From Candidatus Dadabacteria bacterium (lineage in GTDB: Bacteria; Desulfobacterota_D; UBA1144; Nemesobacterales; Nemesobacteraceae), in contig JAJDUA010000003.1 in the NCBI GenBank assembly GCA_022826905.1, positions 1-46,288 on the forward strand: a stretch of 46,288 nucleotides of DNA. Direction: 5' to 3'. The notes below the pieces were generated by a model. That model did no database searches, was not told where the DNA came from, and saw nothing but the letters and a program-made list of their open reading frames with translations. Below, in pieces: positions 711-19,955 of the stretch (position 1 is its first letter; each line of letters starts with the position of its first letter). A program made the translations under genes and the position numbers.

Positions 711-1070
711 ATGAGCATTCAAAATAACCAACTTGAGTTGCAGGCCGATCCCATTGAAGGGGTCCTGATAATAAGCGTAATTGGCCGAATTGATGGTATG
801 AACGCGCAGGCATTCCATCAAAACCTGGACAAGGAAATTGGCGGTTCTGACAATCCAGTAGTTCTGGATCTTGAAAAGCTGTCCTACATCAGTAGTGCGG
901 GGTTGCGTTCGATTCTGCTTATTGCAAAAACACTCCAAGGTAGAAAAACGAAATTCATGCTGTGTTCTCTACCCGGTCCCATAAAAGAAATCTTCGAGAT
1001 CGCGGGTTTTGACAAAATCATTAGTGTGCTCGAATCTCGTTCTGATGCTATAGCCGCAATCAAGGGTTAA
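711..1070 (+). CDS. STAS-domain anti-anti-sigma factor (SpoIIAA/RsbV type)
   Basis: A single STAS domain of about 119 residues. Proteins of this family bind an RsbW-type kinase when unphosphorylated and release its sigma factor or other partner; phosphorylation of a conserved serine blocks binding. The diagnostic stretch LDLEKLSYISSAGLRS is present and keeps the serine before A-G. I chose the ATG at 711, preceded by GGTGGAG, over the upstream TTG at 696 because the N-terminus then lines up with the paralogue at 18298. The gene is convergent with the histidine-kinase operon and ends 6 bases from it, which links it to the RsbW-like and PP2C proteins there. Target unknown. Confidence 0.9.
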   Translation: MSIQNNQLELQADPIEGVLIISVIGRIDGMNAQAFHQNLDKEIGGSDNPVVLDLEKLSYISSAGLRSILLIAKTLQGRKTKFMLCSLPGPIKEIFEIAGFDKIISVLESRSDAIAAIKG

Positions 1071-4546: not shown

Positions 4547-4963
4547 CTAAATCTTCTTGAACATAGTCAGATGGTTGCGATCATTGTTGCGTTGATAGCG
4601 CACCTCTGTCATCAGTTGCTTCGCCAGCATTATTCCTGCTCCACCAATACGGCGGTCTTCAAGCGAACTTTCGACATCAAGCTCCGGCGCGTCTTCCAGT
4701 GGATTAAAGGGATATCCATCATCCAGTATCTCAACAGTTATGGTTTCACCTTCTCTCGATAAGATGATTTCCACTTCATGTTCCTGGTCATCGTCATGCG
4801 CATAGCTTGCCACGTTAGTGAAAATCTCCTCCAGAGATAGTTGTGTGGGAAACAAAGCCTCGGAGGGGAGACCCTGCTGTTCAAAAAATTCTTCTAGCGT
4901 TGCCGTGATCGTTCGGATTTCTTCCATCCTATTGGGAACGATCAATGTACGTGAAACTTGCAT
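4547..4963 (-). CDS. RsbW/SpoIIAB-like anti-sigma serine kinase
   Basis: A 138-residue GHKL-type ATPase of the HATPase_c_2 class. It carries an N-box (LEEIFTNVASYA), a G1 box (DDGYPFNP) and a G2 box (RRIGGAGIMLAKQLM). Members phosphorylate STAS anti-anti-sigma proteins and sequester a sigma factor or another target. It sits between the receiver-PP2C phosphatase gene (18 bases upstream) and the binding-protein gene (4 bases downstream), so the three are very probably co-transcribed. The STAS proteins at 711 and 18298 are the obvious substrates. No sigma factor gene is adjacent, so the final target is open; it may not be a sigma factor. Confidence 0.9.
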   Translation of the reverse strand: MQVSRTLIVPNRMEEIRTITATLEEFFEQQGLPSEALFPTQLSLEEIFTNVASYAHDDDQEHEVEIILSREGETITVEILDDGYPFNPLEDAPELDVESSLEDRRIGGAGIMLAKQLMTEVRYQRNNDRNHLTMFKKI

Positions 4964-4981: not shown

Positions 4982-6139
4982 TTATTTGGTTCGCAGAACA
5001 AGACAGGTTATATCGTCAGATTGCGGATTTTCACCAGCGAATTCTCTGACCTTATTGAACACCTCGTTCGTAACTTCTTCGGCGTCCTTGAAAGTACTGC
5101 CTTGGAGAATTTCGCAAAACCTGTCCATTTCGAATAATTCCTTATCTTCTTTTTCAGCTTCCACCACTCCGTCAGTGTAAAACACAATCATCGAATCCGG
5201 CTCAAGGGTGACTGTATTTCCCTGATATTTGAAATCCTGCATCACACCCAGAGCAACTCCGCCCGTTGACTCTAATAGCTCAGTTGTCAGATTCGGCCTG
5301 ACAATGACTGGTGGATTATGTCCGCCGTTTGCGTACACGAATTCTTTCGTTCTAGAATCGTAAATGCCATATAACAGGGTTACGAATGTCATGGCATCGT
5401 TTTCATCCGACAACATCGTATTCACCTGTTCCACCACGGCAGCCGGAGAATCGGAAATTGCCGCGCAAGCCTTCAGCAGTGTACGACTGGCCATCATGAA
5501 CATTGCTGCGGGTACTCCTTTGCCCGACACATCAGCTATTGCAACGCCAACCCGGCCATCGTTAAATTCATAAACATCGAAAAAGTCGCCACCTACGGAA
5601 AGAGCCGGAACCATACTTGCATAAAGATCAAATGCTTCAGAAGCCGGAAATGATTTTGGAAGAATATCCTGCTGCATCTTCCGTGCCACATCAAGCTCGT
5701 TCTGGAGAGCTACCAGTTTGTCACGGGCACTCAGTGCGTTACGCCAGAGAGTAAGGTTTTCAATCGTACGTTCGATTGTGGTCTTGAGGTCAGTGAAGTC
5801 TATCGGCTTGGTAACGAAGTCGAATGCCCCATGATTCATAGCAGTCCGTATATTCTCCATATCGCCGTATGCGGAGACCATTACGGCACGAATATCAGGG
5901 TCTACATCCGGTATCTGTGCCAGTAACGTCAATCCGTCCATGACGGGCATGTTGATATCAGACAGTACAATATCAAACCCGCTGTCTTTGCGCAGGAGTT
6001 CAAGGGCTTCCGCGCCGTTGTGCGCGAATTCGAATTCGTAACGACCTCGACGGATCTCACGGCGCATCCTCTGTAGCATGAGCTGTTCTAAATCTATTTC
6101 ATCATCGACAACCAGAATCCGGATTTTGCCATTGTCCAT
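4982..6139 (-). CDS. Response regulator fused to PP2C (SpoIIE/RsbU) phosphatase
   Basis: A 385-residue protein. The receiver domain (about 6-125) has acidic pocket VDDE at 11-14, phospho-acceptor Asp61 in LSDINMPVMDG and Lys111 in VTKPIDF. A helical linker (about 130-165) leads to a PP2C-type phosphatase (about 170-385) with metal-site motifs GGDFFDV, ADVSGKG, YANGGHNPP, YTDGVVEAE and QSDDITCLV. Phosphorylation of the receiver should switch on dephosphorylation of STAS-phosphate, which releases the partner held by the RsbW-like kinase. It is the first gene of the minus-strand operon that ends with the histidine kinase, its probable phosphodonor. Confidence 0.93.
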   Translation of the reverse strand: MDNGKIRILVVDDEIDLEQLMLQRMRREIRRGRYEFEFAHNGAEALELLRKDSGFDIVLSDINMPVMDGLTLLAQIPDVDPDIRAVMVSAYGDMENIRTAMNHGAFDFVTKPIDFTDLKTTIERTIENLTLWRNALSARDKLVALQNELDVARKMQQDILPKSFPASEAFDLYASMVPALSVGGDFFDVYEFNDGRVGVAIADVSGKGVPAAMFMMASRTLLKACAAISDSPAAVVEQVNTMLSDENDAMTFVTLLYGIYDSRTKEFVYANGGHNPPVIVRPNLTTELLESTGGVALGVMQDFKYQGNTVTLEPDSMIVFYTDGVVEAEKEDKELFEMDRFCEILQGSTFKDAEEVTNEVFNKVREFAGENPQSDDITCLVLRTK

Positions 6140-6516: not shown

Positions 6517-7311
6517 ATGAACAGTCGGAACAGACACCGTTCAGTTAATCCAGTCTGGCTGCTTTTTTCCTGCTGTCTGGCTTTTGCGTACGTTCTGCTG
6601 CTGATCGGTGTTGCCCACGCACAAACCATCGGTGAGGCAAAGACGGCCTACGCGCAGGGACGATTCACCGAGGCGGCCCGGATCGGTGAGGGTCTCGGGA
6701 CTTCACAGGGGTTAGCATTATCCGCAAAATCGCTGTCGGTACACGCTCACTACATCGCCGCTAAAAGCGAAAACAAGGAGATCCTTGAGCGCGCCTTGAA
6801 GATGGCGAGAAAAGCGGTTCTCTCCGACCCCAGTAATGCGGATGCCCATCTGCAGTTGGCGCGTGTCATCGGACGGCGCGCGCAGACTGTTGGCGTAATC
6901 GAAGCAGCGGGCGAGGCCGAAAAAATACGCGAATCAACGGAAAACGCCCTTCGAATCAATCCCAAGTTGGCAGCGGCGCATATCAGCCTGGGAAGATGGC
7001 ATTCGGAATTGGTTGGCGCAATGGGTTCGTTTCTGGCCCGCAGCGTTTACGGCGCGCGGAAAAAAGATGCTATCTCCTCTTTCGAGAGGGCTCTTATCCT
7101 AGCTCCCAATGCGAAAGATGTGCTCCTGCAATACGCACTCGGCCTGCTGGCGCTGGATGATTACCAATACCGGGAGAAAGCACGGGACCTGCTGACGCGC
7201 TCCATCGGGTTGCCGGCCAAGGACGCTTACGAACGGATACTACACATAGAAGCAGTCGAGGCCCTCGATAGCCTCAATGAATCTGACGACGATGACGATG
7301 ACGACTACTGA
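6517..7311 (+). CDS. Secreted TPR-repeat protein with acidic tail
   Basis: A 264-residue protein that I start at ATG 6517, because this places a signal peptide at the N-terminus (hydrophobic core about 14-32, cleavage near AHA-Q). The mature part is alpha-helical with TPR-like repeats: residues of the type ALKMARKAVLSDPSNADAHLQLA and NALRINPKLAAAHISLGRWH. It ends in a run of aspartates (SDDDDDDDY). The arrangement resembles RMDN-like bacterial TPR proteins; a precise function is not known. Its position beside the sterol-type genes leaves open a role in periplasmic trafficking. The ribosome binding site (GGAA) is weak. Confidence 0.75.
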   Translation: MNSRNRHRSVNPVWLLFSCCLAFAYVLLLIGVAHAQTIGEAKTAYAQGRFTEAARIGEGLGTSQGLALSAKSLSVHAHYIAAKSENKEILERALKMARKAVLSDPSNADAHLQLARVIGRRAQTVGVIEAAGEAEKIRESTENALRINPKLAAAHISLGRWHSELVGAMGSFLARSVYGARKKDAISSFERALILAPNAKDVLLQYALGLLALDDYQYREKARDLLTRSIGLPAKDAYERILHIEAVEALDSLNESDDDDDDDY

Positions 7312-7352
7312 CGACTTGTTGCACCTCTGGGAACCGAGATGCCGGGACTGTC

Positions 7353-8708
7353 CTAAGCCTTTCTGAGGCGCCAGCCGTACATCATGCGTCCATAGAAATT
7401 AAACCACTTCCTTGCTTCGGAATCCTGAAACGGATACTCCGCTCCAAGTTGTCTTGCCGTAACGAGGCCGGAAACAAAACATGTCTCTTGACTGTTGATC
7501 AGAGTATGGGCGCCACAGTGCCAAGTTCTTTTCTTTCCCTGAACGAAACCGAACAGATTAACCAGAAAAGCTATGTGAAACACATCGTGTACGATATGCT
7601 GAAACCACCATTTTTTTACGATCTTTTCTTCGTTGATACGACTGATCGGGTTGTAGGTTACGAGGCATGGCTTGTCCGATTCCTTCGCCCAGGGCTGCTG
7701 GTTGTGCATGATGTAGGTGATTTCATAGTTGTCGGGTCTCACGCCGTACTGTTCAATGTGGTTGCTCCGGGTTTCGAGGGGGTTGACCTCGTTGTCCGGG
7801 AGAACCGAGGCATCCGAGTGGACAATGGTATGGTTGTGCAGTTCGCTCTCGTAACGAACCGAAGAAAGAAGAAAGCTCTCCAGCAAGGTCGGATTGTCCA
7901 GAATCATCAATGTCTGGTTTGCGTTGCACGCAAAGACCACATCATCAAATGTCTCCGTGGTTCCGTTCTCATCTTCAATGACCACACCTGATGAGTGCCG
8001 ATACACTTTCCTCACGGGCCTGCTAAGGTATATCCTGTCCCGAAATCCGGCGGACATTTCCTCGTATATACGCCGTGTACCCATATTCCATGTTTGCATT
8101 GGTGTTGCGGTTTCTATATCAAAAAACTCAAGATAACGGGCAAACAGGGACGCGGGCATGTCAAACACATTTGTTGCCATCAGGAAATTGACGAACATCG
8201 GCTTCAGAACCTTGTACCTGAAGTCTCCGGAGAATCTGCCCCAGTTAAGAACCGCGCCCATGCTGATGTAGTTAAATGGATTAAGGGCATTGAGCAATCG
8301 GGATCTGGAGTGGTTAAGTCGACCGAACCATTTGAGACGCTTCAGGAGTTTCTGGAACTTGGCAATCTCCGGTTCCAGCTGCCTCCTGATCTCCGAGTCG
8401 AAATCGTGGGCGTAGACCTCGCCACGGTACTTAACGCTGTAGTTGAATCTGGTGTCTAACAGATCAATGCCGTGTTGTCGCGTGAACAACACCATATGGT
8501 GGTATGCCGATGGAATGCACGCGGTAACGGAAATATCGAACGGGATGGAGGTTCCATTTTCTTGAGGCATGTCAGCTGTTATGGCATTGCCACCAAGCTG
8601 GGGCTGGGCTTCAAAAATCCGGAACTCGAACAGATCGGGGTGTCGGTGCAGAGCCCAAGCCACTCCCAACCCGGATACTCCACCGCCGATAATTGCAACT
8701 CTTCTCAT
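7353..8708 (-). CDS. COG2907-type NAD(P)/FAD-dependent oxidoreductase
   Basis: A flavoprotein of about 450 residues in the amine-oxidase/phytoene-desaturase superfamily. The N-terminal dinucleotide fold RRVAIIGGGVSGLGVAWAL is followed by the FAD-ribose acidic segment FRIFEAQPQLGGNA. The central part (YEEMSAGF, DVVFACNANQTLMIL) fits predicted NAD/FAD-binding proteins that often neighbour lipid-modifying methyltransferases. I prefer the ATG at 8708, which has GGAGAA upstream; an ATG at 8735 would add nine residues. It lies about 180 bases downstream of the P450 gene on the same strand. It may act as a desaturase or oxidase on the same lipid. Not a squalene epoxidase by motif. Substrate unknown. 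Confidence 0.85.
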   Translation of the reverse strand: MRRVAIIGGGVSGLGVAWALHRHPDLFEFRIFEAQPQLGGNAITADMPQENGTSIPFDISVTACIPSAYHHMVLFTRQHGIDLLDTRFNYSVKYRGEVYAHDFDSEIRRQLEPEIAKFQKLLKRLKWFGRLNHSRSRLLNALNPFNYISMGAVLNWGRFSGDFRYKVLKPMFVNFLMATNVFDMPASLFARYLEFFDIETATPMQTWNMGTRRIYEEMSAGFRDRIYLSRPVRKVYRHSSGVVIEDENGTTETFDDVVFACNANQTLMILDNPTLLESFLLSSVRYESELHNHTIVHSDASVLPDNEVNPLETRSNHIEQYGVRPDNYEITYIMHNQQPWAKESDKPCLVTYNPISRINEEKIVKKWWFQHIVHDVFHIAFLVNLFGFVQGKKRTWHCGAHTLINSQETCFVSGLVTARQLGAEYPFQDSEARKWFNFYGRMMYGWRLRKA

Positions 8709-8891
8709 TTTTTCAATGTTCTCCGTTTTATTCATAACCGGTATCAGGACCTCTTCGTACTTACTTATTATAGACCAAAGACATCAGGAGGAAATCCGAT
8801 GAGCACCGGTGTGCGCTGATTGGCCCAGAAAATATCCGTCCATGGAGTCTCGAAATGTTTGACAAATCCACACAGACCCCTGCGGGGCACA

Positions 8892-10913
8892 TCAGATGGG
8901 TAATTCGCGTTTCTGCTCGGCGACGTGAAATCTGAGCTTCTTGTTCGGTTTCATTGATGGAAACGCGGTGATCCCAAGTTTATAGTCTTCGGGGTATATG
9001 CGAAGAGTAAAGTAATGCGCTATGATCATCAGGTTGACGGCCATATGCAGGGTCATCCATCGGTTGCCAAGGCATGTGTGCGGACCCAGTCCGTACGGGG
9101 CGTATCCGGGTTTTTTATGCTCATTGCGGGGCGCCAAGTAGCGGTCGATATCAAATGAAAAAGGATCCGGGAAGGAATCTTCCATATAGTGCGGAGCGGT
9201 TTGCGCAATGTTTATTCTGGCCCCCTGCGGTATTTCGTAGCCCTCGACCGTGAAAGTATTCACGACGTCACGCATAGACATGGGAACAATCGGGTACACC
9301 CGAAGGCATTCATTGATGAAGCGATCGGTGACTTCCATATTGGCAGGAGTGAAGTCTTTGCCGGTTGGATCACTATCTGAAAACAGTGCGTCGGCTTCAC
9401 TTCGAATTTTTTCGTAAAGCTCAGGTTGTGATACCATGGCATAAAGGGCGAAGCTGAAGCCGTCACCCAGGTACATGCTGGCAAGCACCACTGCCGATAG
9501 AGCGAAACTCAGATTCGACTCGGGCATCAATAGCGGGTAGTTAGCATGGAGGCTTAGCAGATCATCCACAAAGTTTCGCGGACAACCGGCCCGTTGGGCT
9601 GCTGTATGGACACTTTGTACCCGCTCCATCAACGTGTCTATTGCCTTGGCCTTGCGTTTCATCCCCGGTGTTTTCAGCATGAATTTTGGCAGGATGCTTA
9701 AGAGATGGGTGCTGAGTGCCCGCTCCTTGTAGGCAATTATATCGTCCATGATATCCTGCGTATCAATACTCATGGATAAAGGTGACATCTGGCCGTTAAT
9801 CATTTTTCGGCACAGGTCCCTTGCGGGATAGCTTTCGCCCACTTTCCAATCTGCCATGTATTCGCGAGCCTTGCTGTAGACCACATCCAGCTGTTCTTCC
9901 AGTCTCCCGCGGGAGTAGGCTGGAGTCATGGTTTTTCGATATCGGAAGTGGTCTGCGCCATCGAGGGACGGTAATATGCCTACGGCCCCATACACTTTCT
10001 CAAAGTCTCCAAAGTAGCTTTTGGATGTCAGGTACTTCCGTCCGTGTCGACGTACCCAGCGGTTTATTTCTGGTCCGGAAAGAAAAATATTCGGCTTTGA
10101 GAAAGGAGGAGCAATCTCAAAAACTGGGCCGTACTGCTTTGTTAAATCTGCAAAAAGTGCCGGGAGGTTCCCAGTGCGAGCATGTGAGTTGAGCAGTAGC
10201 CGATAAAGTGGGATGCGCGGGATTTTTTTGCCAATATGGGAACTTGCGAGCAACGGATTATTGATGTTCTCTGCGACCGCGTCTGCCATTGAACGGCCGA
10301 TGAGGTCCATCCTGCAGATGAGCTTGATTCGCTCTTCTCCCTTTTTGTCGAGCTTGAACATGAGGGGAAAGATATCGCATGTTTCGATCAGGCAAATGAT
10401 GATAATATCTCGCGGATGTGGAATGTTGTCTGAAAAGATGTCTTTGCCGATTCTGGTTCTGATGAACTGACCTATGCTTGCATCTTCATCGGCGCCGTCT
10501 GCATCCGCGTATAGTTTGCCGGGCGCCACTGTCCAGAAATCACCCTGGTGATGTTCCAGAATTCCTAGGTCAACCAGATTCTCTAATGTCAGATCAGTGA
10601 TTGTTTCCGCATGTTTGATGAGCTTTTCAATCCAGTATTGGGCGTTGTGTTGGGCTGGCTCATCGACAATTTCCTTAAGCATTAGGTCCAAGCTTGGGTT
10701 GCCCGTTTCTGTTGGGTCCAGAAGGAGAAGTGACTCCACATCTGTGTCGACACGCGAAAGCAGGGAAAGTTCCGCGAGTGCCGCACCGATAACAGCACAG
10801 TTCATTTTGTGGGCGGCTATTTGGTAAAAGTAGCCGCTCTCCTCATCAAGGAGCATCAATATGAACTCGTCGAGCAAACTCAGTTGCTGGTTTTCAGCAG
10901 AATCATTTATCAA
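8892..10913 (-). CDS. GPP34 (GOLPH3-like) domain fused to cytochrome P450
   Basis: A 673-residue two-domain protein. Residues about 10-215 match the helical GPP34 fold of GOLPH3: SLLDEFILMLLDEESGYF, AVIGAALAELSLLSRVD, ENLVDLGILE. In eukaryotes this domain binds phosphoinositide membranes. Residues about 240-665 form a P450: K-helix E535-C-L-R538, meander region near 587-592, and haem loop YGLGPHTCLG with Cys614. The haem loop begins with Tyr where Phe is usual. The I-helix reads SMYLGDGFSFA, lacking the normal acid-Thr pair. Start is TTG 10913 with GAGGGAAG 8 bases upstream; the first in-frame ATG would cut into GPP34. Divergent from the sterol-reductase gene. Substrate inferred to be a sterol-like lipid. 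Confidence 0.88.
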   Translation of the reverse strand: MINDSAENQQLSLLDEFILMLLDEESGYFYQIAAHKMNCAVIGAALAELSLLSRVDTDVESLLLLDPTETGNPSLDLMLKEIVDEPAQHNAQYWIEKLIKHAETITDLTLENLVDLGILEHHQGDFWTVAPGKLYADADGADEDASIGQFIRTRIGKDIFSDNIPHPRDIIIICLIETCDIFPLMFKLDKKGEERIKLICRMDLIGRSMADAVAENINNPLLASSHIGKKIPRIPLYRLLLNSHARTGNLPALFADLTKQYGPVFEIAPPFSKPNIFLSGPEINRWVRRHGRKYLTSKSYFGDFEKVYGAVGILPSLDGADHFRYRKTMTPAYSRGRLEEQLDVVYSKAREYMADWKVGESYPARDLCRKMINGQMSPLSMSIDTQDIMDDIIAYKERALSTHLLSILPKFMLKTPGMKRKAKAIDTLMERVQSVHTAAQRAGCPRNFVDDLLSLHANYPLLMPESNLSFALSAVVLASMYLGDGFSFALYAMVSQPELYEKIRSEADALFSDSDPTGKDFTPANMEVTDRFINECLRVYPIVPMSMRDVVNTFTVEGYEIPQGARINIAQTAPHYMEDSFPDPFSFDIDRYLAPRNEHKKPGYAPYGLGPHTCLGNRWMTLHMAVNLMIIAHYFTLRIYPEDYKLGITAFPSMKPNKKLRFHVAEQKRELPI

Positions 10914-11195
10914 CCGTCGCTTCCCTCAATCTAAATGACGCGGTGGAGTAACGAGCACAGGAAATTGTAAGATCTTAACCCATAATTTATAATATCTTAA
11001 CTCTATATCTTGGTCGGGGTATAGTCAAATGGCGAGGCTTCAATACAGAGAACCTGAATTTCTAGGGAATCTGGACGCTGTTTCTATATGACTGATGTAA
11101 TATCCTTAACGTTACCTAAATTTAAGTAACGTGTGTTATTGATCTTTATCTATGCTCATAATTAACAACTTGCTTGAAAAAAAGGGGGTTCAGTT
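10914..11195. promoter_or_regulatory. Divergent promoter region, P450 / ERG4-24-like gene
   Basis: An AT-rich 282-base gap separates two divergently transcribed lipid-enzyme genes. It must carry both promoters. AT-rich stretches at 10980-11010 and 11090-11160 are candidates for -10 regions. The plus-strand gene has a clear ribosome binding site, AAAGGGGG, about 8 bases before ATG 11196. Confidence 0.6.
11109..11132. promoter_or_regulatory. 24-bp near-perfect palindrome, candidate operator
   Basis: The arms ACGTTAC and GTAACGT flank a TAAATTTA core, with only one mismatched base pair across the 24 bases. Size, symmetry and AT-rich core fit the binding site of a dimeric repressor such as a TetR- or GntR-type regulator. 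It lies 64 bases upstream of the ERG4/24-like start and about 195 bases from the P450 start, so one regulator could control both. No regulator gene is adjacent. Confidence 0.5.
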
Positions 11196-12335
11196 ATGAT
11201 TGAATGGCTTGGTATTGGTCACTTTTTCGAGCTTTCCCGGACGGAAGCGATTGCGGGCTTTTTCACCCCGCTGGTGATTTTCGTCGTGTTCTTTCTGGCG
11301 CAGCTTATACTGCCCGGGAAGCGGGTTCCCGGCTACGTAATTAACCCAAAGACCGGAGGACCCCGCAATTATCGACTAAACGGTCTTCTGGTGTTTGCGG
11401 TCGCGCTGGCTGTGTGGGCTTTTGAGCTCACCGGGATGCCGCGTGACTGGTTCTACCGGTCCACGATCTATGCCGTGGTCGGCGGAACGGTTTTCACCAC
11501 AATCTTTGCAGTCATAGCGGTCTTCAGCCAGCCGCAAGGCGAGATAAAGAACCCGCTTCTGGCGCTTTGGGACGGGCGGGCGCAGGAAATGTCGTTTTTC
11601 AACGAGCGCTTCGATGTAAAGATGTATTTCTATGTTGTCGGCGGAACGATGCTGGCGCTCAACGCCCTCTCCGGTGCCGCGTACAACTACGAACTCTTTG
11701 GCGAGAACTACAATCCGGGTGTTTTCCTGTATGCGGGGTTCTTCACATTCTACGTAATGGATTACTTTATCTTCGAGCGTGTCCAGCTGTATACCTACGA
11801 TCTGATTCATGAGGGTATCGGCTTCAAGATGTTCTGGGGAGGACTCGTGGTCTACGGATGGCTGTTCATTCTCCCGTTGTGGGGCATGGCCGTTTATCCG
11901 GATCCTGGATTCTCATCCGGTTGGACGTATGTCTGGCTCATAGGAACGCCTGCGCTGTTTCTGTTCGGGTGGGGCATCTCGCGCGGCGCCAACTTGCAGA
12001 AATACACATTCAAGCGATGGCCCGACCGCAAGTTTCTCGGACTCATCGAGCCTGAGTACATCCAGGCCGGAGACCGCAAGATACTGTGCAGCGGCCTGTG
12101 GGGTGTCGCCCGCCACTTTAACTATCTGGGTGAAGGCTTTCTTGGTCTTTCAATTGCCTTGGCATTCGGATACTTCACTAACCTCTGGGCGTGGACCTAC
12201 TTTATCTTCGTCGTAACGTTTTTTACCTTTCGTCAACGTTTTGACGATGCGTACTGTGCCGAGAAATACGGTGCCGAAAAGTGGGCGGAGTATCAGGCCC
12301 GGGTGAAGTACCGGATTTTTCCCGGGATTTATTGA
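11196..12335 (+). CDS. ERG4/ERG24-family sterol reductase-like membrane protein
   Basis: A 379-residue polytopic membrane protein with about nine hydrophobic segments. It carries the family signatures of eukaryotic sterol C-14/C-24(28) reductases and 7-dehydrocholesterol reductase: ERFDVKMYF (137-145), YDLIHEGIGFKMFWG (201-215), RGANLQKYTFKR (263-274), CSGLWGVARHFNYLGE (298-313), and a C-terminal WAEYQARVKYRIFPGIY. Those enzymes reduce sterol double bonds with NADPH in the membrane. The closest alternative, isoprenylcysteine methyltransferase-like proteins, shares the C-terminal fold but not the central LQKYTFKR and EGIGF motifs. Placement between a P450 and a sterol methyltransferase supports a sterol role. 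Which double bond it reduces cannot be told. Confidence 0.87.
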   Translation: MIEWLGIGHFFELSRTEAIAGFFTPLVIFVVFFLAQLILPGKRVPGYVINPKTGGPRNYRLNGLLVFAVALAVWAFELTGMPRDWFYRSTIYAVVGGTVFTTIFAVIAVFSQPQGEIKNPLLALWDGRAQEMSFFNERFDVKMYFYVVGGTMLALNALSGAAYNYELFGENYNPGVFLYAGFFTFYVMDYFIFERVQLYTYDLIHEGIGFKMFWGGLVVYGWLFILPLWGMAVYPDPGFSSGWTYVWLIGTPALFLFGWGISRGANLQKYTFKRWPDRKFLGLIEPEYIQAGDRKILCSGLWGVARHFNYLGEGFLGLSIALAFGYFTNLWAWTYFIFVVTFFTFRQRFDDAYCAEKYGAEKWAEYQARVKYRIFPGIY

Positions 12336-12423
12336 GAATTCCCTGCGGAGTTAACTCGGGGTAATTACGGCCGTCGCCGGACCGCATGGTGCTTGAGTTG
12401 AATCTGATTGCCAACTATATGGA

Positions 12424-13425
12424 TTAACCCGGTTTGCGTGCCTTGTGGTAGTACATTGGAGTAACAATCCCCAGACGTGCTGCGGCCACAAGGCTGTCGG
12501 CCACGATATTGACAATTTTCCGTGCCTCGGATGACCCCTTGGGTACGGCGCGTAGGCCTTCGAGAACGTGAAGGGCCGCCGAAAAGACCTTGCGGCCAAT
12601 GGCTGTTCTCGAAAAACTCCTCAGATTCAGGCTGCCCCCTTCTAGCGGTCCATACCAAGGCGTCCTGGGGTCCCCGTCCAGGGCGCGGTCACGCGCCTCG
12701 ATGAGTTCGAAACCGACTGCCCTTAGGCTGTCGTTCACCTCTTTGAATGAAGCGATTTCCGGAAGAGAGGAGAAATATTCATTCGCTTCCTTGAGTTCCC
12801 GATGCTCAGGATTTCCGTCGTCATAAAGCGGGGTCATACACACATCATACCCAGTGAAGACCGCACCGGGGCGCAATACACGGAATATCTCGGCATAGGC
12901 GGCGGCTTTATCCGGCGCATGACACATGGCCTCGATATGGTAAGCCGCGTCAAAGCTTCCGTCTTCCGCCGGTATATTCAGGAAGTCGCCATGCAGGAGA
13001 CTGCACAGATGTTCCAGACTGGCCTCTTGGTTATACACAGAGCACTTCCCGAGCTGATATTCGTTGATATTGAGGCCTACGATCGAAGCGCCGAACTTCT
13101 TTGCGAGGGCGCGTTGGGGTCCGCCCACGCCGCATCCGACATCAAGCACCTTCATGCCCGGCTTCAATCCCATGGCTTCACCAAGAAAATACTCATGGTT
13201 GGCAATGGATTCCTCAAAAGACACCCCCGGCTCCATCAATGCGAAGTGAATCGACTTCCCCCAGCCACGCTCGCAAAAATCTGTAACGAGGTTGTAAAAC
13301 GCCTTTACCGTGCTTGCGTACTCTTCCTTGCTCCGCCCCTGGCTTGTGTGGTACTTCGATAGCCTCTCCGCCGTGTTCTCCGGTCGAACTGCCTTCGAAA
13401 TTGTATTATGAAAGTCACCTGCCAT
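12424..13425 (-). CDS. Sterol C-24 methyltransferase-like protein (ERG6 family), copy 1
   Basis: A 333-residue SAM-dependent methyltransferase. It has the features of sterol 24-C-methyltransferases: FCERGWGKSIHFA (50-62), equivalent to the YExGWG sterol-binding region; SAM loop LDVGCGVGGP (94-103); EAMCHAP (165-171), equivalent to EATCHAP of ERG6; and GYDVCMTPLYD (192-202). The C-terminal PKGSSEARKI and GIVTPMYYHKARKP match the Sterol_MT_C domain. Such enzymes transfer methyl from SAM to the sterol side-chain C-24. The start ATG has AAAGGGA upstream. It is convergent with the sterol-reductase gene (88-base gap). The second copy at 16399 is about two thirds identical by eye. A cyclopropane-fatty-acid synthase is excluded by the C-terminal domain. 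Confidence 0.9.
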   Translation of the reverse strand: MAGDFHNTISKAVRPENTAERLSKYHTSQGRSKEEYASTVKAFYNLVTDFCERGWGKSIHFALMEPGVSFEESIANHEYFLGEAMGLKPGMKVLDVGCGVGGPQRALAKKFGASIVGLNINEYQLGKCSVYNQEASLEHLCSLLHGDFLNIPAEDGSFDAAYHIEAMCHAPDKAAAYAEIFRVLRPGAVFTGYDVCMTPLYDDGNPEHRELKEANEYFSSLPEIASFKEVNDSLRAVGFELIEARDRALDGDPRTPWYGPLEGGSLNLRSFSRTAIGRKVFSAALHVLEGLRAVPKGSSEARKIVNIVADSLVAAARLGIVTPMYYHKARKPG

Positions 13426-13887
13426 CTGCGTTTCCCTTTAACTTTTCTTCTGAATTTCCGCAAAATCTTATCCAGTCTCCGTCAATGGGTCAAAAATAGT
13501 CTATGGATCACCAAGCCCGCTTTTTTCAGAACTTCAATGAGGCATTTGGTCTGTAAGGGCTGGGTTTTTGGGGATTCAGGGAGTCGTAACAAGCCTGGGA
13601 CCGCCACACCATGACTCGTCAAAAGGGCATTCCACAAGCCAGGATCACTCGATTCGGGCAGAACTATCCAGTCCCTTCGGGGCTCATTACCGTCTTACTG
13701 AATCAATACAGAAACGCTGTCCCAAACAACAGGGAATCCATGGAGCAGTTCAGCGTGGTTATCCCGTCGGCTACTCAATCGGGAAGCAGCTTGCAATTAA
13801 AATTAGGCTCTTTATTCAGATTTTCTGAACTCATGAGAATAAAATCAGGAAGTCCCTTGAAACACCGCCTGCAGGTTTCCGGTAAAA
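13426..13887. other. Intergenic region without a supported gene
   Basis: About 460 bases lie between methyltransferase copy 1 and the terminator of the repeat-protein gene. Short plus-strand frames run through (13408-13614, 13568-13828, 13611-13925), but they overlap one another and none has a ribosome binding site or a recognisable product. It should contain the promoter of the minus-strand methyltransferase. Nothing else stands out. Confidence 0.45.
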
Positions 13888-13925
13888 CTAACCTGTCCTG
13901 CACCTCACAGTACCGGACAGGTTAG
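13888..13925 (-). terminator. Strong stem-loop, probable terminator of the 13949 gene
   Basis: A perfect 11-bp stem (CTAACCTGTCC / GGACAGGTTAG) encloses a 16-base loop. Read on the minus strand it lies 23 bases after the stop codon of the gene at 13949-14635 and is followed by TTTT. That is the layout of a Rho-independent terminator, although the T tract is short. Confidence 0.6.
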
Positions 13926-13948
13926 AAAATTGTTTTAGAAGACTCTTT

Positions 13949-14635
13949 TTACTGGCTCGCCTCAATATCCCGAAGCGCTTCGGCTACCTCAACCCAGCGA
14001 GTCCAGCCCCGGTTAGCGTACCCTTGCGCATCAGCCGCGGTCATGGGTTCAAGCGTTGAATCCGACACGGTTTCCCCGAACGCAAGCAATATCCGGTCCC
14101 AGCGGTCCGTGTGGGAGCTGTAAGACACATAACGTGAGTCATAACGCCATTCGTATATCTTTGCGATCAACTCCGCGTAGGTATCATCCTTTCCTCTTCC
14201 TTCCTCAAGACATTCGATAACTTCTGCCACTGGCTCCCATCGGTTTGCAGAGAACAGTGTTTCCATAAACCGCGCCTCAACTCCGCTCATTCCCCCAACA
14301 TTCCCGGCAAAGGCATCGAGTACCTTCTGCCAGCGTGCTACATGCTCATCACCGTTATGCGTTTCCTGAACATAGTTCTCCACATCCGGCTGCACTTCAT
14401 CCAGATCACAGTCTGCCAGTTGCTGGTCATTGTCGTCCTGAGACTGAATATCGTCCTGAGACGAGGAGCTGTAAAAAATGTCGTCAGACCCTAAGCCTAA
14501 GCTGGGTTGTCTTGTCACCGTGACTACTTGGGAAGAATTTCTCACATCGGGTCTGTATGCGAAACCTGGATTGCCTACATTCTGCCACCAACCCCCACCT
14601 CCACATTGCTCCTTCAGTATAGTCTGCTCACTCAA
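13949..14635 (-). CDS. Unknown protein with two W-x-V-L-x-A-F repeats
   Basis: A 228-residue reading frame. The N-terminal 90 residues are low-complexity, rich in Gly, Ser, Asp and Gln. The C-terminal part has two related repeats of about 50 residues, at 98-145 and 175-226. Both follow the plan RW-x(2)-(V/I)L-x-AF, a short acidic or Met-containing loop, then (W/RW)-x-(P/E)VAE; the second contains EPMTAADAQ and RWVEVAEALRDIE. Similar segments occur, to my recollection, near the C-termini of large bacterial surface proteins. The start is a TTG without a good ribosome binding site, so this may be a detached 3' remnant of a larger gene. Function unknown. Confidence 0.55.
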   Translation of the reverse strand: MSEQTILKEQCGGGGWWQNVGNPGFAYRPDVRNSSQVVTVTRQPSLGLGSDDIFYSSSSQDDIQSQDDNDQQLADCDLDEVQPDVENYVQETHNGDEHVARWQKVLDAFAGNVGGMSGVEARFMETLFSANRWEPVAEVIECLEEGRGKDDTYAELIAKIYEWRYDSRYVSYSSHTDRWDRILLAFGETVSDSTLEPMTAADAQGYANRGWTRWVEVAEALRDIEASQ

Positions 14636-14789
14636 CGCCTCTCTCGCGGGATGAGAACGATTATGCTTCTAGAATACCCAGCATCGCAAACGCCACTCAA
14701 TAAAACCCGACTTGAATATAAATCCGGTTCAAGCCCCGGAGCGCGAGAATTTAGGTTACTATATTCTTGAGCTAAAAGGCTGAAGCACC

Positions 14790-16133
14790 ATGTTGTTTAA
14801 AAAGACCCAGCCCCGGATTACAAGAGATCCGTTTGCCATGCCCGGTGAGAATGGCGGGAACATTGCGGCCTTCTTCCTCCCGGCGATTTTCGCGGCGGTG
14901 CTGGGAATAGTTGTTTCGTTGCTTCCGGCTGCGGCGTACCCAGTCGGGTTTGCCGACGGGATTGATATCTCCGGGCGCATCTCGACTGAGTCCTGGCTCT
15001 ATCCCCAGAGCGCCTCGTACACCGACCAGCGCTCGTATGCGGGCGGCCTCGCGCTTGAGACAACATTCCATATTGAGAACGAGGAAGGTACAAGCGTAAC
15101 GCTGACTCCCTTTTTGCGGTACGATGCCGGGGACCCGGAACGTACGCGCGCTGATTTCCGCGAGGCCTATCTTCTTATGTACGGTGATGTCGGCGAAGAC
15201 GAATGGGAATTGCGTCTGGGTATCGACCAGGTCTTCTGGGGAGTCGTGGAGTTGTATTCCCTAGTGGATATTATCAATCAGACCGACATTGCGGAACACC
15301 CGAACGAAAAGACAAAGATGGGTCAGCCGATGGCCCATTTCACCTGGTCGGGCGGCTGGGGGTCTCTTGAACTGTTCGCTGTTACATGGCACCGCACGCG
15401 CACCTATCCAGGCCGCCATGGCCGCCAGCGGTATGAGTTCATTGTGGACCAGGATCTGGTTTCATACGAATCCGGCGCGAAACGGTGGCATGTTGATCTT
15501 GCCAGCCGGTACAGCGGATTTTTCGGGCCGCTCGATATTGGCCTCAGCGTCTTCAACGGACTTGCCCGGGAGCCGAGTCTCCTGCCGAGACTGGTTGACT
15601 CCGGGCTGGTTCTGGCCCCACGTTACGAGGAGATTCGCCAGTTCGGCGTGGATGCCCAGCTTACCAGGGGCTACCTGCTTCTTAAGCTTGAAGCCATCTA
15701 CCGCGCCGGGGCGAAAAACAGCAGGTTCATTCAGGACCTCAACAATTTCGATGAAGAGAACTACACGGCTTTTATCCTGGGAAGCGAGTACACATTCTAT
15801 TCCATAATGGACTCAAACTCTGACCTGGTACTGTTTGCCGAATGGGCTCACGACGGACGGGGAAGGTGGGCAACCAATGCGTTCGCAAACGACCTGTTTC
15901 TTGCCGCGCGTCTCGGATTAAACGATCCTCAGAGCACCGAAATTGTCGTAAGCGTCCTCGGTTCCCTTGACAACAGCAGCCGCGTCGTCTCAGGCGAGTT
16001 CAAGCGCCGCCTCTGGGATAACTGGTTCCTGCATATTGAAACCTCGGCCTATCTGCAAATCGATGAAGATGACTTCATATACTACGTCCGGCGCGACGGT
16101 TATGTAAGAGTGAATCTCGACTACAATTTCTGA
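14790..16133 (+). CDS. Outer-membrane beta-barrel protein
   Basis: A 447-residue protein with an N-terminal hydrophobic signal (about residues 28-50, ending AAAYPVGFA). A long series of alternating amphipathic strands rich in Trp, Tyr and Gly follows, and the C-terminus ends in aromatic YNF, as in outer-membrane barrels. Repeated patterns such as WELRLGIDQVFWGVVE resemble the DUF1302/alginate-export-like porins that often accompany RND lipid exporters and LolA-like proteins. A LolA-like gene follows at 17427, after sterol-methyltransferase copy 2; the RND pump itself is missing here. An internal ATG at 14838 would still keep the signal. It may pass the modified lipid across or into the outer membrane; that is inference. 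Confidence 0.8.
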   Translation: MLFKKTQPRITRDPFAMPGENGGNIAAFFLPAIFAAVLGIVVSLLPAAAYPVGFADGIDISGRISTESWLYPQSASYTDQRSYAGGLALETTFHIENEEGTSVTLTPFLRYDAGDPERTRADFREAYLLMYGDVGEDEWELRLGIDQVFWGVVELYSLVDIINQTDIAEHPNEKTKMGQPMAHFTWSGGWGSLELFAVTWHRTRTYPGRHGRQRYEFIVDQDLVSYESGAKRWHVDLASRYSGFFGPLDIGLSVFNGLAREPSLLPRLVDSGLVLAPRYEEIRQFGVDAQLTRGYLLLKLEAIYRAGAKNSRFIQDLNNFDEENYTAFILGSEYTFYSIMDSNSDLVLFAEWAHDGRGRWATNAFANDLFLAARLGLNDPQSTEIVVSVLGSLDNSSRVVSGEFKRRLWDNWFLHIETSAYLQIDEDDFIYYVRRDGYVRVNLDYNF

Positions 16134-16144
16134 ATTCCGAAGAG

Positions 16145-16168
16145 AGCGGATTGTCTGTCTGCTTTTTT
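16145..16168 (+). terminator. Rho-independent terminator after barrel gene
   Basis: A 6-bp stem AGCGGA/TCTGCT (one G-U pair) with a 7-base loop is followed directly by a run of T. It lies 11 bases after the stop of the outer-membrane barrel gene and separates it from methyltransferase copy 2, which therefore probably has its own promoter in the 230-base gap. Confidence 0.6.
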
Positions 16169-16398
16169 AATATGCGTGTTGACCGGTTCGGGCAAAGTCG
16201 ATTTTTTTTCGCTTCCTGCGGGAATGTGTTACTATAAAAATCCCGGTTCCGTTACCTGCGGGTCGCTTTATCAGGTGTATGGGCGGAGAAGAATCCGTTG
16301 TCAACGCCCGTCGCGGGCCCGGGGCCACAGAGCTTTTTGGGAAACGCTCAACCGGTATCGGGACTGCGGGACAAGCAGCCTTAAGGAGGAAAACACAA

Positions 16399-17391
16399 AT
16401 GGCGGATGATCTGGATTCAAAGACTTCCAAGCCGGGAGACACGGCGGAGAGGGTTTCGAGGTATTACGGAACCCTTGGGCAGGGCGATGAAGAGTACGCC
16501 CGGAATGTAACGGCGTTTTACAACCTTATTACCGACTTCTGCGAGCGTGGCTGGGGGAAGTCGATTCACTTTGCGTCGATGAAGGGCGGGGAGTCTTTTG
16601 AGGAAGCCATCGCGCGCCATGAGTACTACCTGGGGGAGAACATCGGCATGAAGCCGGGCATGAAGGTGCTTGATGTCGGATGCGGCGTGGGTGGACCTCA
16701 GCGTTCCCTGGCAAAGAAGTTCGGCGCCTCGATAGTGGGTCTCAACATCAACCAGTATCAGCTCGGGAAATGCTCTGTGTATAACCAAGAGGCCGGTCTG
16801 GAACATCTATGCAGCCTGCTGCACGGCGATTTTCTCAACATTCCGGCGGAAGACGAGAGCTTTGACTCGGCTTACCATATCGAAGCCATATCTCATGCGC
16901 CGGATAAAGCCGCCGCTTTTGCCGAGGTATTCCGCGTATTGCGCCCCGGAGGGATCTTCGTCGGCTATGACTGCTGCATGACCCCGCTCTATGATGCCGG
17001 AAATCCTGAGCAGCGGGAACTCAAAGAAGAAATGATTTACAACAACGCTCTTCCGCAAATACCTTCATTCACTGAACTAACCGACAGCCTGCAGGCAGTC
17101 GGTTTCGAACTTCTCGATACGCATGACCGCGCGTTGGACTCTGACCCCGAGACGCCCTGGTATGGAGCACTTGAGGGAAACAGCCTCAGCATGAGAGGTT
17201 TTCCCAGAACGCCGCTTGGCCGCAAGGTTATCTCGGCGGTTCTGCGCGTCCTTGAAGGTATACGCGTCGCGCCCAGGGGTTCGCACGAGGTGCAGAGAGT
17301 TCTCAACATGGCGGCTGACAGTTTTCTGACCGCGGGACGTCTGGGGATTTTTACGCCCATGTACTACCACAAGGTACGCAAACCAGGTTAA
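16399..17391 (+). CDS. Sterol C-24 methyltransferase-like protein (ERG6 family), copy 2
   Basis: A 330-residue paralogue of the enzyme at 12424, with the same order of motifs: FCERGWGKSIHFA (48-60), LDVGCGVGGP (91-100), EAISHAP (162-168), GYDCCMTPLYD (189-199) and C-terminal GIFTPMYYHKVRKP. The cysteine of the ERG6 EATCHAP motif is replaced by Ser165 here. ATG 16399 is preceded by AAGGAGG at ideal spacing; a longer frame from 16279 is not supported. The gene runs into the LolA-like gene 35 bases downstream. Two SMTs in one locus suggest successive methylations (C-24 methyl, then ethyl), as plants do with SMT1 and SMT2, or different substrates. Inference only. Confidence 0.9.
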   Translation: MADDLDSKTSKPGDTAERVSRYYGTLGQGDEEYARNVTAFYNLITDFCERGWGKSIHFASMKGGESFEEAIARHEYYLGENIGMKPGMKVLDVGCGVGGPQRSLAKKFGASIVGLNINQYQLGKCSVYNQEAGLEHLCSLLHGDFLNIPAEDESFDSAYHIEAISHAPDKAAAFAEVFRVLRPGGIFVGYDCCMTPLYDAGNPEQRELKEEMIYNNALPQIPSFTELTDSLQAVGFELLDTHDRALDSDPETPWYGALEGNSLSMRGFPRTPLGRKVISAVLRVLEGIRVAPRGSHEVQRVLNMAADSFLTAGRLGIFTPMYYHKVRKPG

Positions 17392-17426
17392 TACGGTAAT
17401 CGGATTCCGAACAAAAGGAGGATCAA

Positions 17427-18248
17427 GTGAATTATTTCTCATTTCAGCGCACAGTGCTTGCGGTGCTTGGAAGTTTTCTCGCAATCTGTTTCTTTCCGGT
17501 TCAGTCGCATTCCGACCTATTGGAGGGTTCCGCCGAGGAAGCGGGTCTCAGGATAGCGACCGAATCTCGTGAGCGTCAGAAGGGTTTCGGCAATTTTACC
17601 GCGAACCTGACTATGACTCTGCGTAACAAGCAGGGCAAGGAAACCCTGCGTTCACTCCGCCTCAAGGTTATTGAAGTCCAGGGGGAAGGTGATCGGACCC
17701 TGTTTGTGTTTGACCACCCTCGGGACGTCAAGGGAACCGCTTTTCTTGTTCACGCCCGCAAGGACGGTCCGGACCAGCAGTGGCTCTATCTTCCGGCCCT
17801 TAAACGGGTGAAAAGTATAAGTTCCTCGAAACAGTCCGGCTCTTTTATGGGCAGCGAATTTTCCTACGAGGACATGGGAGCAGTCGAGATCGAGAAATTC
17901 ACTCACCGGTTTATTCGCAAAGAACCCTGCGGCGATCTTGAGTGCCTTGTTCTTGAACGCACCCCGAAAAGCGAGGATTCCGGATACTCCCGCCAGCTGG
18001 TCTGGTTTGACCGTGAGGAGCTTCGGGCAATTCAGATCCAGTACTTTGACCGAAGGGGTGAGCATCTGAAGACGATGGTCGTTGAGGGCTACGCAAAGTA
18101 CCTTGATCGATTCTGGCGGAGCAGCAAGTTGACGATGACAAACCTGCTTACGGGCAAAAGTACCGTGCTTCTGTGGTCAGATTACAAGTTCGGAACTGAC
18201 CTTGACGCCAAGGACTTTACCCGGACAGCACTTAAGCGGATACGGTAG
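17427..18248 (+). CDS. LolA-like periplasmic outer-membrane lipoprotein-sorting protein
   Basis: A 273-residue secreted protein (signal peptide about 1-31, cleavage near SHS-D). The mature part has the unclosed-barrel LolA/LppX-like pattern of the family often annotated as outer membrane lipoprotein-sorting protein: FTANLTMTLRNKQG, FVFDHPRDVKGTAFL, QWLYLPALKRVKSIS, GSFMGSEFSYEDMG. Members carry hydrophobic cargo across the periplasm and are usually next to RND/MMPL exporters. Here the neighbours are sterol methyltransferase copy 2 (35 bases upstream, probably one transcript) and an outer-membrane barrel, so sterol-like lipid is a plausible cargo. The start is GTG 17427 with AAGGAGG 6 bases before it. 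Confidence 0.85.
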   Translation: MNYFSFQRTVLAVLGSFLAICFFPVQSHSDLLEGSAEEAGLRIATESRERQKGFGNFTANLTMTLRNKQGKETLRSLRLKVIEVQGEGDRTLFVFDHPRDVKGTAFLVHARKDGPDQQWLYLPALKRVKSISSSKQSGSFMGSEFSYEDMGAVEIEKFTHRFIRKEPCGDLECLVLERTPKSEDSGYSRQLVWFDREELRAIQIQYFDRRGEHLKTMVVEGYAKYLDRFWRSSKLTMTNLLTGKSTVLLWSDYKFGTDLDAKDFTRTALKRIR

Positions 18249-18297: not shown

Positions 18298-18648
18298 ATG
18301 AGCGACTCGAAAATTGAAATCCAAACCGAGCAGATCAAGGGAGTCCTTGTGATAAGCGTGTTCGGCGAGGTTCACGGTCTGGATGTACAGGAATTTCATA
18401 ACAAACTGTTGGATACGGTTACCGGTTTTGACAAAAAGGTGCTTCTCGACCTTGAGAAACTCTCCTACATCAATAGCGCGGGCTTGCGCTCAATACTGAT
18501 TGTCGCAAAGAAACTGCGGGACAGCAGAGCAAGGTTCGCTATATGCTGCCTGTCCGGATCCGTGAAAGGAATCTTTAAGATATCGGCTTTTGACAAGGTC
18601 ATTGACGTGTTCGAGTCTCGTTCTGAAGCCATAGAGGCGATAGAGTGA
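18298..18648 (+). CDS. STAS-domain anti-anti-sigma factor, second copy
   Basis: A 116-residue single STAS domain, clearly paralogous to the protein at 711. Both share the stretch LDLEKLSYI-x-SAGLRSIL and the C-terminal pattern FDKVI-x-V-(F/L)ESRSEAI. The phosphorylatable serine before A-G is kept. The start ATG has AGAGGT 5 bases upstream. It follows the LolA-like gene by about 50 bases and may be co-transcribed with the lipid genes. If it binds the RsbW-like kinase at 4547, the partner-switching module could respond to, or control, the sterol-type locus. No kinase or phosphatase is adjacent on this side. Confidence 0.9.
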   Translation: MSDSKIEIQTEQIKGVLVISVFGEVHGLDVQEFHNKLLDTVTGFDKKVLLDLEKLSYINSAGLRSILIVAKKLRDSRARFAICCLSGSVKGIFKISAFDKVIDVFESRSEAIEAIE

Positions 18649-18758
18649 AGGGACGCAAGCCGAAAACAGTCCCGCTTTAAAAATATACGTTTTTGCCTTT
18701 TGTAGAGTGGTGGTTTAGAATTCCCGGATACAAAAATCTTAAAGGGGAATCGCACACC

Positions 18759-19907: not shown

Positions 19908-19955
19908 GGTGTTATAATTCAGGGTTCATAACCAGTTATAAGCCGGGAGAAAAGC

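What the first reader, a model, noticed from the sequence alone, without database searches (positions are those of the whole stretch)
6517..18248. Candidate bacterial sterol side-chain/ring modification and trafficking locus
Seen: two ERG6-type methyltransferases with GWG, CHAP-type and C-terminal Sterol_MT motifs; an ERG4/ERG24-type reductase; a P450; a COG2907 FAD oxidoreductase; an outer-membrane barrel; a LolA-like periplasmic protein; and a secreted TPR protein. Known: C-24 methylation and sterol double-bond reduction are eukaryotic hallmarks. Bacterial sterol pathways are rare, and bacterial sterol methyltransferases are known from only a few uncultured lineages, as far as I recall. Inferred: this set tailors a sterol and moves it to the outer membrane. 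No squalene epoxidase or oxidosqualene cyclase is here, so the substrate could be scavenged from a host.
Basis: partly seen in the sequence, partly recalled or inferred. Interest (0 to 1): 0.92.

Follow-up and report, generated by a model that had tools for sequence, protein, structure and literature searches.

The report
Sponge bacterium's sterol-tailoring gene island
A bacterium related to known sponge symbionts carries a conserved block of genes that looks built to alter and move sterols it probably cannot make itself, which would make it a remodeller of its host's sterols if the enzymes prove active.

Summary
The genes are there: two ERG6-type sterol methyltransferase (SMT) homologues, an ERG4/ERG24-type reductase, a P450, an FAD amine-oxidase-like enzyme, a LolA-like and a TPR protein.

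The genome belongs with Candidatus Dadabacteria. Sterol_MT_C occurs in 12 of 13 genomes of its genus and 0 of 44 others of the phylum. No OSC/SHC domain was found in 57 genomes, no squalene/phytoene synthase in the 13 of the genus. Tailoring and trafficking of acquired, probably host, sterols is the best reading.

Bacterial SMTs, including one from a MAG without other sterol genes, are published (PMC10070321): a new variant of a known kind. Against certainty: both window SMTs have lost the conserved aromatics of sterol-binding Region I (YEYGWG to CERGWG), so product and even substrate are open. No activity was shown.

The parts
696..1070 (+). STAS-domain protein (anti-sigma-factor-antagonist type), left part of the conserved island
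   Evidence: Pfam STAS 70 bits; 85-91% identical to 6 STAS genes of relatives, 66% to a second copy in L046 and 51% to the window's own second copy
1077..3302 (-). sensor histidine kinase (HAMP, HisKA, HATPase), conserved in the island
   Evidence: Pfam; synteny
3343..4542 (-). periplasmic binding protein, Peripla_BP_6 type
   Evidence: Pfam Peripla_BP_6 178.8 bits; synteny
4547..4963 (-). RsbW-like HATPase (anti-sigma kinase type; the name RsbW is by resemblance)
   Evidence: Pfam HATPase_c_2 95.1 bits; synteny
4982..6139 (-). receiver plus SpoIIE-type phosphatase
   Evidence: Pfam Response_reg 87.9 and SpoIIE 186.5 bits; synteny
6517..7311 (+). secreted TPR protein (the ORF opens at 6430 GTG; true start uncertain)
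   Evidence: TPR Pfam hits under cut-off; signal-peptide-like start by eye; 77-83% identical in relatives, 71% for one partial piece in L049
7353..8735 (-). FAD-dependent amine-oxidase-like oxidoreductase
   Evidence: Pfam Amino_oxidase 57.5 bits; best solved relative LkcE 84.5 bits; 90-94% identical in relatives, 97% for one partial piece
8892..10913 (-). GPP34 (GOLPH3-type) domain fused to a cytochrome P450; heme-Cys and ExxR motifs present, the usual AGxxT of the I helix absent (motif names recalled)
   Evidence: Pfam GPP34 at residues 13-215 and p450 at 234-651; best solved match a CYP51 (6mi0), 73.4 bits; found in 10 of 13 genus genomes at E <= 1e-20, 2 of these cut by a contig end
11196..12335 (+). 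ERG4/ERG24-type sterol reductase homologue
   Evidence: Pfam 108.5 bits; delta-14 sterol reductase 4quv 119.5 bits, with RGANxQK, SGxWGxARHxNYxG and the DDAxC/KYG segment aligned
12424..13425 (-). SMT1, ERG6-type methyltransferase; Region I reads CERGWGKSIHF
   Evidence: Pfam Sterol_MT_C 52.1 bits; tree; motif table
13949..14635 (-). ORF of 228 aa without family, in the 1.36 kb between SMT1 and barrel that is about 0.25 kb in 6 of 7 relatives; may be an insert, possibly not a gene
   Evidence: no Pfam or NCBIfam hit; spacing in L002-L008
14790..16133 (+). predicted outer-membrane barrel protein (unconfirmed)
   Evidence: no Pfam or NCBIfam hit; model failed; 76-80% identical to 8 relatives
16399..17391 (+). 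SMT2, second ERG6-type methyltransferase, 72% identical to SMT1 (the ORF opens at 16279; a start at 16399, MADDL, is more likely); Region I reads CERGWGKSIHF
   Evidence: Pfam Sterol_MT_C 65.4 bits; tree
17427..18248 (+). LolA-like periplasmic protein
   Evidence: Pfam LolA_like 201.8 bits; 84-87% identical in relatives
18298..18648 (+). second STAS protein, at the place where 4 relatives examined carry an MMPL/RND transporter
   Evidence: Pfam STAS 59.5 bits; L045, L047, L050 and L052 have a 789-791 aa protein of one cluster next to LolA, of which the L045 one was Pfam-tested as MMPL

Best explanation
A conserved gene island in one genus of Candidatus Dadabacteria (probably sponge-associated) that tailors and moves sterols the cell acquires and does not make. 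Proposed steps: (1) an exogenous sterol, most likely from the host, passes the envelope (barrel, LolA-like, TPR and MMPL/RND proteins; inferred); (2) the ERG6-type SMTs transfer methyl groups from SAM to the side-chain double bond (homology shown, activity inferred, product uncertain because Region I is altered); (3) the KshA-type Rieske oxygenase, the GPP34-P450 fusion, the FAD oxidoreductase and the ERG24-type reductase oxidise and reduce ring or side chain (families shown, reactions inferred); (4) the RND/LolA-like set places the product in the envelope or exports it (inferred). The neighbouring kinase, binding protein, RsbW-like, SpoIIE-phosphatase and STAS genes may regulate it (synteny shown, role inferred).
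For: Homology: Sterol_MT_C over cut-off in all three SMTs of the genome; 31 bacterial SMT rows are one side of a branch (98/91) against 3 recalled eukaryotic SMTs and 2 pieces of non-sterol methyltransferases. Linkage: SMT, ERG24, P450 fusion and Rieske all found in 8 of 13 genus genomes (transcribed), on one contig in 7 of those 8; in the window's genome they lie on two contigs. Restriction within the phylum: Sterol_MT_C 12 of 13 in the genus, 0 of 44 outside; KshA_C 10 of 13, 0 of 44; ERG4_ERG24 over cut-off 11 of 13, 0 of 44, with 3 weaker hits outside. No de novo route seen: SQHop_cyclase_C 0 of 57, SQS_PSY 0 of 13 in the genus and 7 of 44 outside, squalene epoxidase no hit in the own genome, the only one searched. 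dN/dS 0.08-0.26.
Against: Region I aromatics of SMT1 and SMT2 (Y81, Y83 and F89 in yeast numbering) are C, R and I, and SMT3 has M at 81, so sterol methylation is not assured. The best solved matches of SMT2 are non-sterol methyltransferases (MitM 90 bits), no solved protein listed there matching the C-terminal domain. The island's ERG24 homologue scores far below a second copy in G018 and G019 (106.9 against 226-232 bits). The P450 lacks the usual I-helix Thr (alignment). The transport families have many other uses; the Sterol-sensing hit is not diagnostic. Host association is inferred from bin names of relatives. The island is not universal in the genus: G023 (89% complete) has none of the four marker genes and G016 only SMT and Rieske. 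A KshA-type Rieske could point to degradation.
Confidence: 0.6

Rival explanations
1. SMT1 and SMT2 descend from sterol methyltransferases but now act on another lipid (isoprenoid or fatty acid), with the FAD enzyme, P450 and reductase tailoring that lipid.
For: Region I aromatics are lost in 11 of 11 genus SMT1 copies aligned and in the window's SMT2, while G020's SMT2 and 6 of 6 relatives from other bacteria (L009, L011-L015) keep YEYGWG or YEFGWG. FAD amine-oxidase-like genes next to methyltransferases are also known from fatty-acid modification (recalled, not tested).
Against: Sterol_MT_C, GWG, H90, PWY and TPM motifs are kept; non-sterol NCBIfam models are far under their cut-offs (best, sarcosine/dimethylglycine methyltransferase, 67-69 bits against 550); the neighbouring ERG24-type reductase and KshA-type Rieske belong to steroid-associated families.
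Confidence: 0.2
2. The island degrades host steroids for carbon: the Rieske protein is a 3-ketosteroid hydroxylase and the adjacent beta-oxidation genes remove the side chain.
For: KshA_C Pfam hit and best solved match KshA (81.7 bits); acyl-CoA dehydrogenase, hydroxyacyl-CoA dehydrogenase, enoyl-CoA hydratase and thiolase genes at 18693-22809, one of whose weaker matches is the EchA19 model (215.5 bits; its link to cholesterol breakdown is recalled).
Against: SMTs and ERG24-type reductases are tailoring enzymes of biosynthesis (established knowledge). EchA19 is under its cut-off of 400, and the models that do reach theirs are generic (acetyl-CoA C-acyltransferase, 3-hydroxybutyryl-CoA dehydrogenase, lists capped at 25 for two proteins). 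KstD and ring-cleavage genes were not searched.
Confidence: 0.1
3. The organism makes sterols de novo and the key genes are in the missing part of the genome or too divergent to be found.
For: The genome is 93% complete in 69 contigs. Sponge bacteria with ERG24-CYP51-LSS clusters are published (PMC9531527, passages).
Against: 0 of 57 genomes have SQHop_cyclase_C and 0 of 13 in the genus SQS_PSY, including G026, one contig of 1,590,246 bases though rated 91% complete; the control genomes rang in both searches (2 and 7 of 14).
Confidence: 0.05
4. Eukaryotic (sponge) contamination of the assembly.
For: SMTs and sterol reductases are typical of eukaryotes.
Against: Uninterrupted bacterial ORFs with the same bacterial neighbours in 7 loci from 7 named Dadabacteria MAGs; the bacterial SMTs stand apart from the three recalled eukaryotic ones.
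Confidence: 0.01

Closest known systems
Bacterial sterol methyltransferases of sponge symbionts, Chlamydiae and Sandaracinus MAGs (PMC10070321; parts 1-3 of 7 read, plus passages)
   Same: ERG6-type SMTs in uncultured, partly sponge-associated bacteria; one active SMT is from a Chlamydiae MAG without other sterol genes, discussed there as possible methylation of host sterols.
   Different: The word Dadabacteria is not in its main text. Here two close SMT genes and a third are linked to a Rieske oxygenase, a GPP34-P450 fusion and an RND/LolA-like set, and Region I is changed. I could not compare sequences with the tested proteins.
Clusters of steroid genes (ERG24-CYP51-LSS, often with SMT or FDFT1 beside them) in Ircinia symbionts (PMC9531527; passages)
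   Same: Sponge-associated bacteria with ERG24-type reductase and SMT close together.
   Different: Those clusters hold the cyclase and CYP51; here no cyclase is found and the P450 is not shown to be CYP51. Dadabacteria is not in its main text.
Sterol reductases of sponge-associated chlamydiae (PMC9666466; passages)
   Same: Sterol reductase genes in sponge-associated bacteria that are not known to make sterols.
   Different: No SMT, Rieske or P450 island is described in the passages seen.
BstA/BstB/BstC sterol transport proteins of Methylococcus capsulatus (PMC10942540; passages)
   Same: An RND-family inner-membrane protein with periplasmic partners proposed to move sterols.
   Different: The partners there are PhnD-type and TRAP/TPAT-type; here a LolA-like and a TPR protein. 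Homology to the Bst proteins was not tested.
Delta-14 sterol reductase 4quv (bacterial; organism recalled, not from a call)
   Same: Best solved relative of the reductase, 119.5 bits over residues 35-379.
   Different: Distant; a second copy in G019 is much closer (219.8 bits), so the island's enzyme may act on another double bond.

Membership tests
Sterol C-24 methyltransferase (SMT/ERG6) | SAM-binding motif LDVGCGxGGP | tested here: met
   SMT1 and SMT2 LDVGCGVGGPQR
Sterol C-24 methyltransferase (SMT/ERG6) | C-terminal Sterol_MT_C domain | tested here: met
   52.1, 65.4 and 61.1 bits for SMT1, SMT2, SMT3 against cut-off 21.7; 0 of 14 control genomes
Sterol C-24 methyltransferase (SMT/ERG6) | Region I aromatic segment Tyr81-Phe91 (YEYGWGxSFHF), described as directing the reaction (PMC5711494, passages) | tested here: not met
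   CERGWGKSIHF in SMT1 and SMT2, MVFGWGESLHF in SMT3 of this genome; therefore only homology to SMTs is claimed, not C-24 activity
Sterol C-24 methyltransferase (SMT/ERG6) | groups with SMTs and not with other methyltransferases | tested here: met
   phmmer scores and tree; only 2-3 partial non-sterol rows, and eukaryotic rows recalled from memory
Sterol C-24 methyltransferase (SMT/ERG6) | methylates a sterol side chain | not testable with these tools
   needs an enzyme assay
ERG4/ERG24 sterol reductase | family profile and conserved C-terminal motifs | tested here: met
   108.5 bits against 27; alignment with 4quv
ERG4/ERG24 sterol reductase | reduces a sterol double bond | not testable with these tools
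   needs an enzyme assay
CYP51 sterol 14-demethylase | close match to CYP51 and the I-helix AG(x)HT-type motif (motif recalled) | tested here: not met
   73.4 bits to 6mi0; the aligned I-helix stretch is ASMYLGDG; not filed as CYP51
De novo bacterial sterol cluster | oxidosqualene cyclase in the genome | tested here: not met
   no SQHop_cyclase_C hit, own genome and 57 of the phylum
KshA-type Rieske oxygenase | Rieske CxH...CxxH motif and KshA_C domain | tested here: met
   (gene on contig C51, outside the window)
Bst-type sterol transporter | homology to BstA, BstB, BstC | not tested
   no Bst sequences were fetched

The most novel reading that the evidence does not exclude
This genus of sponge-associated bacteria has become a dedicated remodeller of host sterols: without sterol synthesis of its own, it keeps up to four SMT-like genes, some with rebuilt sterol pockets, plus two kinds of oxygenase, makes unusual sponge sterols from host precursors and returns them to the host. 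Sterol fossils read as sponge markers could then be joint products of host and symbiont.
Probability: 0.25. Interest if true: 0.85.

Novelty: new variant of a known kind. Interest (0 to 1): 0.6.

Why it matters
Side-chain-alkylated sterols are used as biomarkers of early animals. A symbiont lineage that seems unable to make sterols but carries several SMT homologues, oxygenases and envelope transport genes would show that sponge sterol profiles can be edited by bacteria. The changed Region I offers natural variants for asking what sets the number and place of methylations, a question that PMC10070321 leaves open in its discussion. For the GPP34-P450 fusion, one search gave 30 papers; none of the 8 listed titles and abstract openings describes it.

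Tried and rejected
AlphaFold models of the GPP34-P450 fusion and of the barrel failed (mean pLDDT 32.9 and 30.9; 7 and 9 aligned sequences), so no fold search was run. The Sterol-sensing hit of the MMPL proteins was rejected as evidence of sterol binding: 17 of 57 phylum genomes in 6 genera and 5 of 14 control genomes have it. A first tree of 39 rows was set aside because its outgroup did not hold together; the second has 36 rows, without 2o57, L032_G022_C86_other and L074. Before both, pieces under 260 aa and the named loci L002-L008 and L010 were left out; most of those repeat a held genome's copy, but L004's SMT1 repeats none that I saw and is missing from the tree and motif table. The program warned of long branches (yeast ERG6 with the outgroup; L019/L020 with SMT3), the eukaryotic rows are not one clade, and the window's SMT2 sits in no starred set. 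Gene conversion between SMT1 and SMT2 was looked for: the window's SMT2 is most like its own SMT1 around alignment columns 160-220, without a clear breakpoint. Of 6 non-Dadabacteria genomes with SMTs, 2 have a cyclase hit and 4 none; their completeness is not told, so nothing is built on it. Literature: 'Dadabacteria' with 'sterol' gave 3 papers; in the one read in passages (PMC12648040) the two words are unconnected, the other two I saw as listings.
Full report
Between 6.4 and 18.2 kb the window encodes, in order, a secreted TPR protein, an FAD amine-oxidase-like enzyme, a P450, an ERG4/ERG24-type reductase, a first SMT, an unexplained ORF, a predicted barrel, a second SMT and a LolA-like protein. 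Both SMTs pass the Sterol_MT_C cut-off, a model that rings in 0 of 14 control genomes; they are 72% identical. The barrel is the weakest assignment: no family hit and a failed model.

The P450 protein has an N-terminal GPP34 domain. At E <= 1e-20 the protein matches 17 of 57 phylum genomes: 10 of 13 in the genus (8 full or nearly full length, 2 cut at a contig end) and 7 of 44 outside, where GPP34 and P450 hits are separate. The window starts at base 1 of its contig, and relatives show what lies beyond: a third SMT, a KshA-type Rieske oxygenase and an MMPL/RND transporter, which in this genome sit at the end of contig C51. That C51 and C13 are neighbours is inferred from the gene order in G020, G015 and G026. 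In the middle of the island lie genes for a histidine kinase, a periplasmic binding protein, an RsbW-like ATPase, a receiver-SpoIIE phosphatase and STAS proteins, kept in the relatives.

Whose genome it is. One scan of genome contigs confirmed 14 of 57 pattern matches: 8 loci of 7 MAGs titled Candidatus Dadabacteria, and 6 loci of Alpha- and Gammaproteobacteria or an unnamed bacterium. Sponge origin is inferred: bin names such as RHO, COS and APA resemble sponges sampled in PMC8163846, which counts 22 Dadabacteria MAGs including SBR1093 (passages); nothing I saw states the source of the window's own genome.

Distribution in 57 genomes of the phylum. Sterol_MT_C: 12 of 13 in the genus, 0 of 44 outside. 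ERG4_ERG24 over cut-off: 11 of 13 and 0 of 44, with 3 weaker hits outside. KshA_C: 10 of 13 and 0 of 44. SMT, ERG24, P450 fusion and Rieske together: 8 of 13 (transcribed), on one contig in 7 of the 8. Of these four, G023 has none and G016 only SMT and Rieske. The genus is one lineage, so this may be one acquisition; the Fisher value is not corrected for shared ancestry.

No synthesis from scratch seen. SQHop_cyclase_C: 0 of 57; SQS_PSY: 0 of 13 in the genus, 7 of 44 outside; both searches rang in control genomes (2 and 7 of 14). Squalene epoxidase was searched in the own genome only, without a hit. G026 is one contig of 1,590,246 bases, rated 91% complete.

Are they SMTs? SMT1 and SMT2 score 220-269 bits against recalled plant and yeast SMTs and 70-89 against pieces of three non-sterol methyltransferases. 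In the tree, 31 bacterial SMT rows are one side of a branch with support 98/91; SMT1 lies firmly with the genus copies, SMT2 next to them with 92/92, SMT3 in a separate subclade; the long-branch warnings are given under Tried and rejected. Against my reading: the best solved matches of SMT2 are non-sterol enzymes. Region I, reported to direct the reaction through its aromatic residues (PMC5711494, passages), reads CE[RQ]GWGxSIHF in 11 of 11 genus SMT1 copies aligned and CERGWGKSIHF in the window's SMT2, while YEYGWG or YEFGWG stands in 6 of 6 SMTs from other bacteria that cover the region, in G020's SMT2 and in the extra SMT of G017 and G025. This suggests altered specificity and leaves a non-sterol substrate open.

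The other enzymes. The reductase keeps the C-terminal motifs of a delta-14 sterol reductase but is distant from it; G018 and G019 carry a second, much closer copy. The P450 is not filed as CYP51. A different KshA-type Rieske protein (26-29% identical to the SMT3-linked one) is encoded directly before the SMT in 2 of the 6 non-Dadabacteria loci (L009, L011) and in G025, a second link between the two families. dN/dS is 0.08-0.26 for the ten genes tested.

Literature. SMT activity of bacterial proteins, including sponge symbionts and a Chlamydiae MAG without other sterol genes, is published (PMC10070321; parts 1-3 of 7). Steroid gene clusters in Ircinia symbionts are published (PMC9531527, passages). 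Searches (call numbers) showed no title or abstract opening about sterol genes of Dadabacteria; the library holds open-licence papers only.

Verdict. A real, conserved island of sterol-family enzymes and envelope transport genes in a bacterial genus in which no sterol synthesis was found; a new variant of a known kind, function unproven.

Noticed in passing
window 18298-18648: A second STAS protein sits where four relatives examined carry a 789-791 aa MMPL-type protein next to LolA.
   Followed up: partly
L006 and L045 (G026), beside the barrel gene: A 119-aa SMT remnant lies where G000 and G020 have SMT2, so SMT2 may be decaying in that species.
   Followed up: partly
L031 (G021) and L034 (G025): An SMT copy appears as two pieces in different frames (146 and 226 aa; 213 and 139 aa): a broken gene or an assembly error.
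   Followed up: no
L032 (G022, contig C86): An extra SMT-like ORF of 335 aa near SMT1 lacks the conserved C-terminal motif.
   Followed up: no
L055 (G025) and L053 (G017): A further SMT, 76% identical to SMT1 and with YEYGWG in Region I, follows a Rieske gene (a fragment of it in L053, at the contig start); in L053 a sulfotransferase and a short-chain dehydrogenase are close by.
   Followed up: partly
L058 (G018) and L059 (G019): A second ERG4/ERG24 protein scoring 226-232 bits; the L059 one is much closer to delta-14 sterol reductase than the island's copy.
   Followed up: partly
window 43216-44613 +: Group II intron reverse transcriptase/maturase.
   Followed up: no
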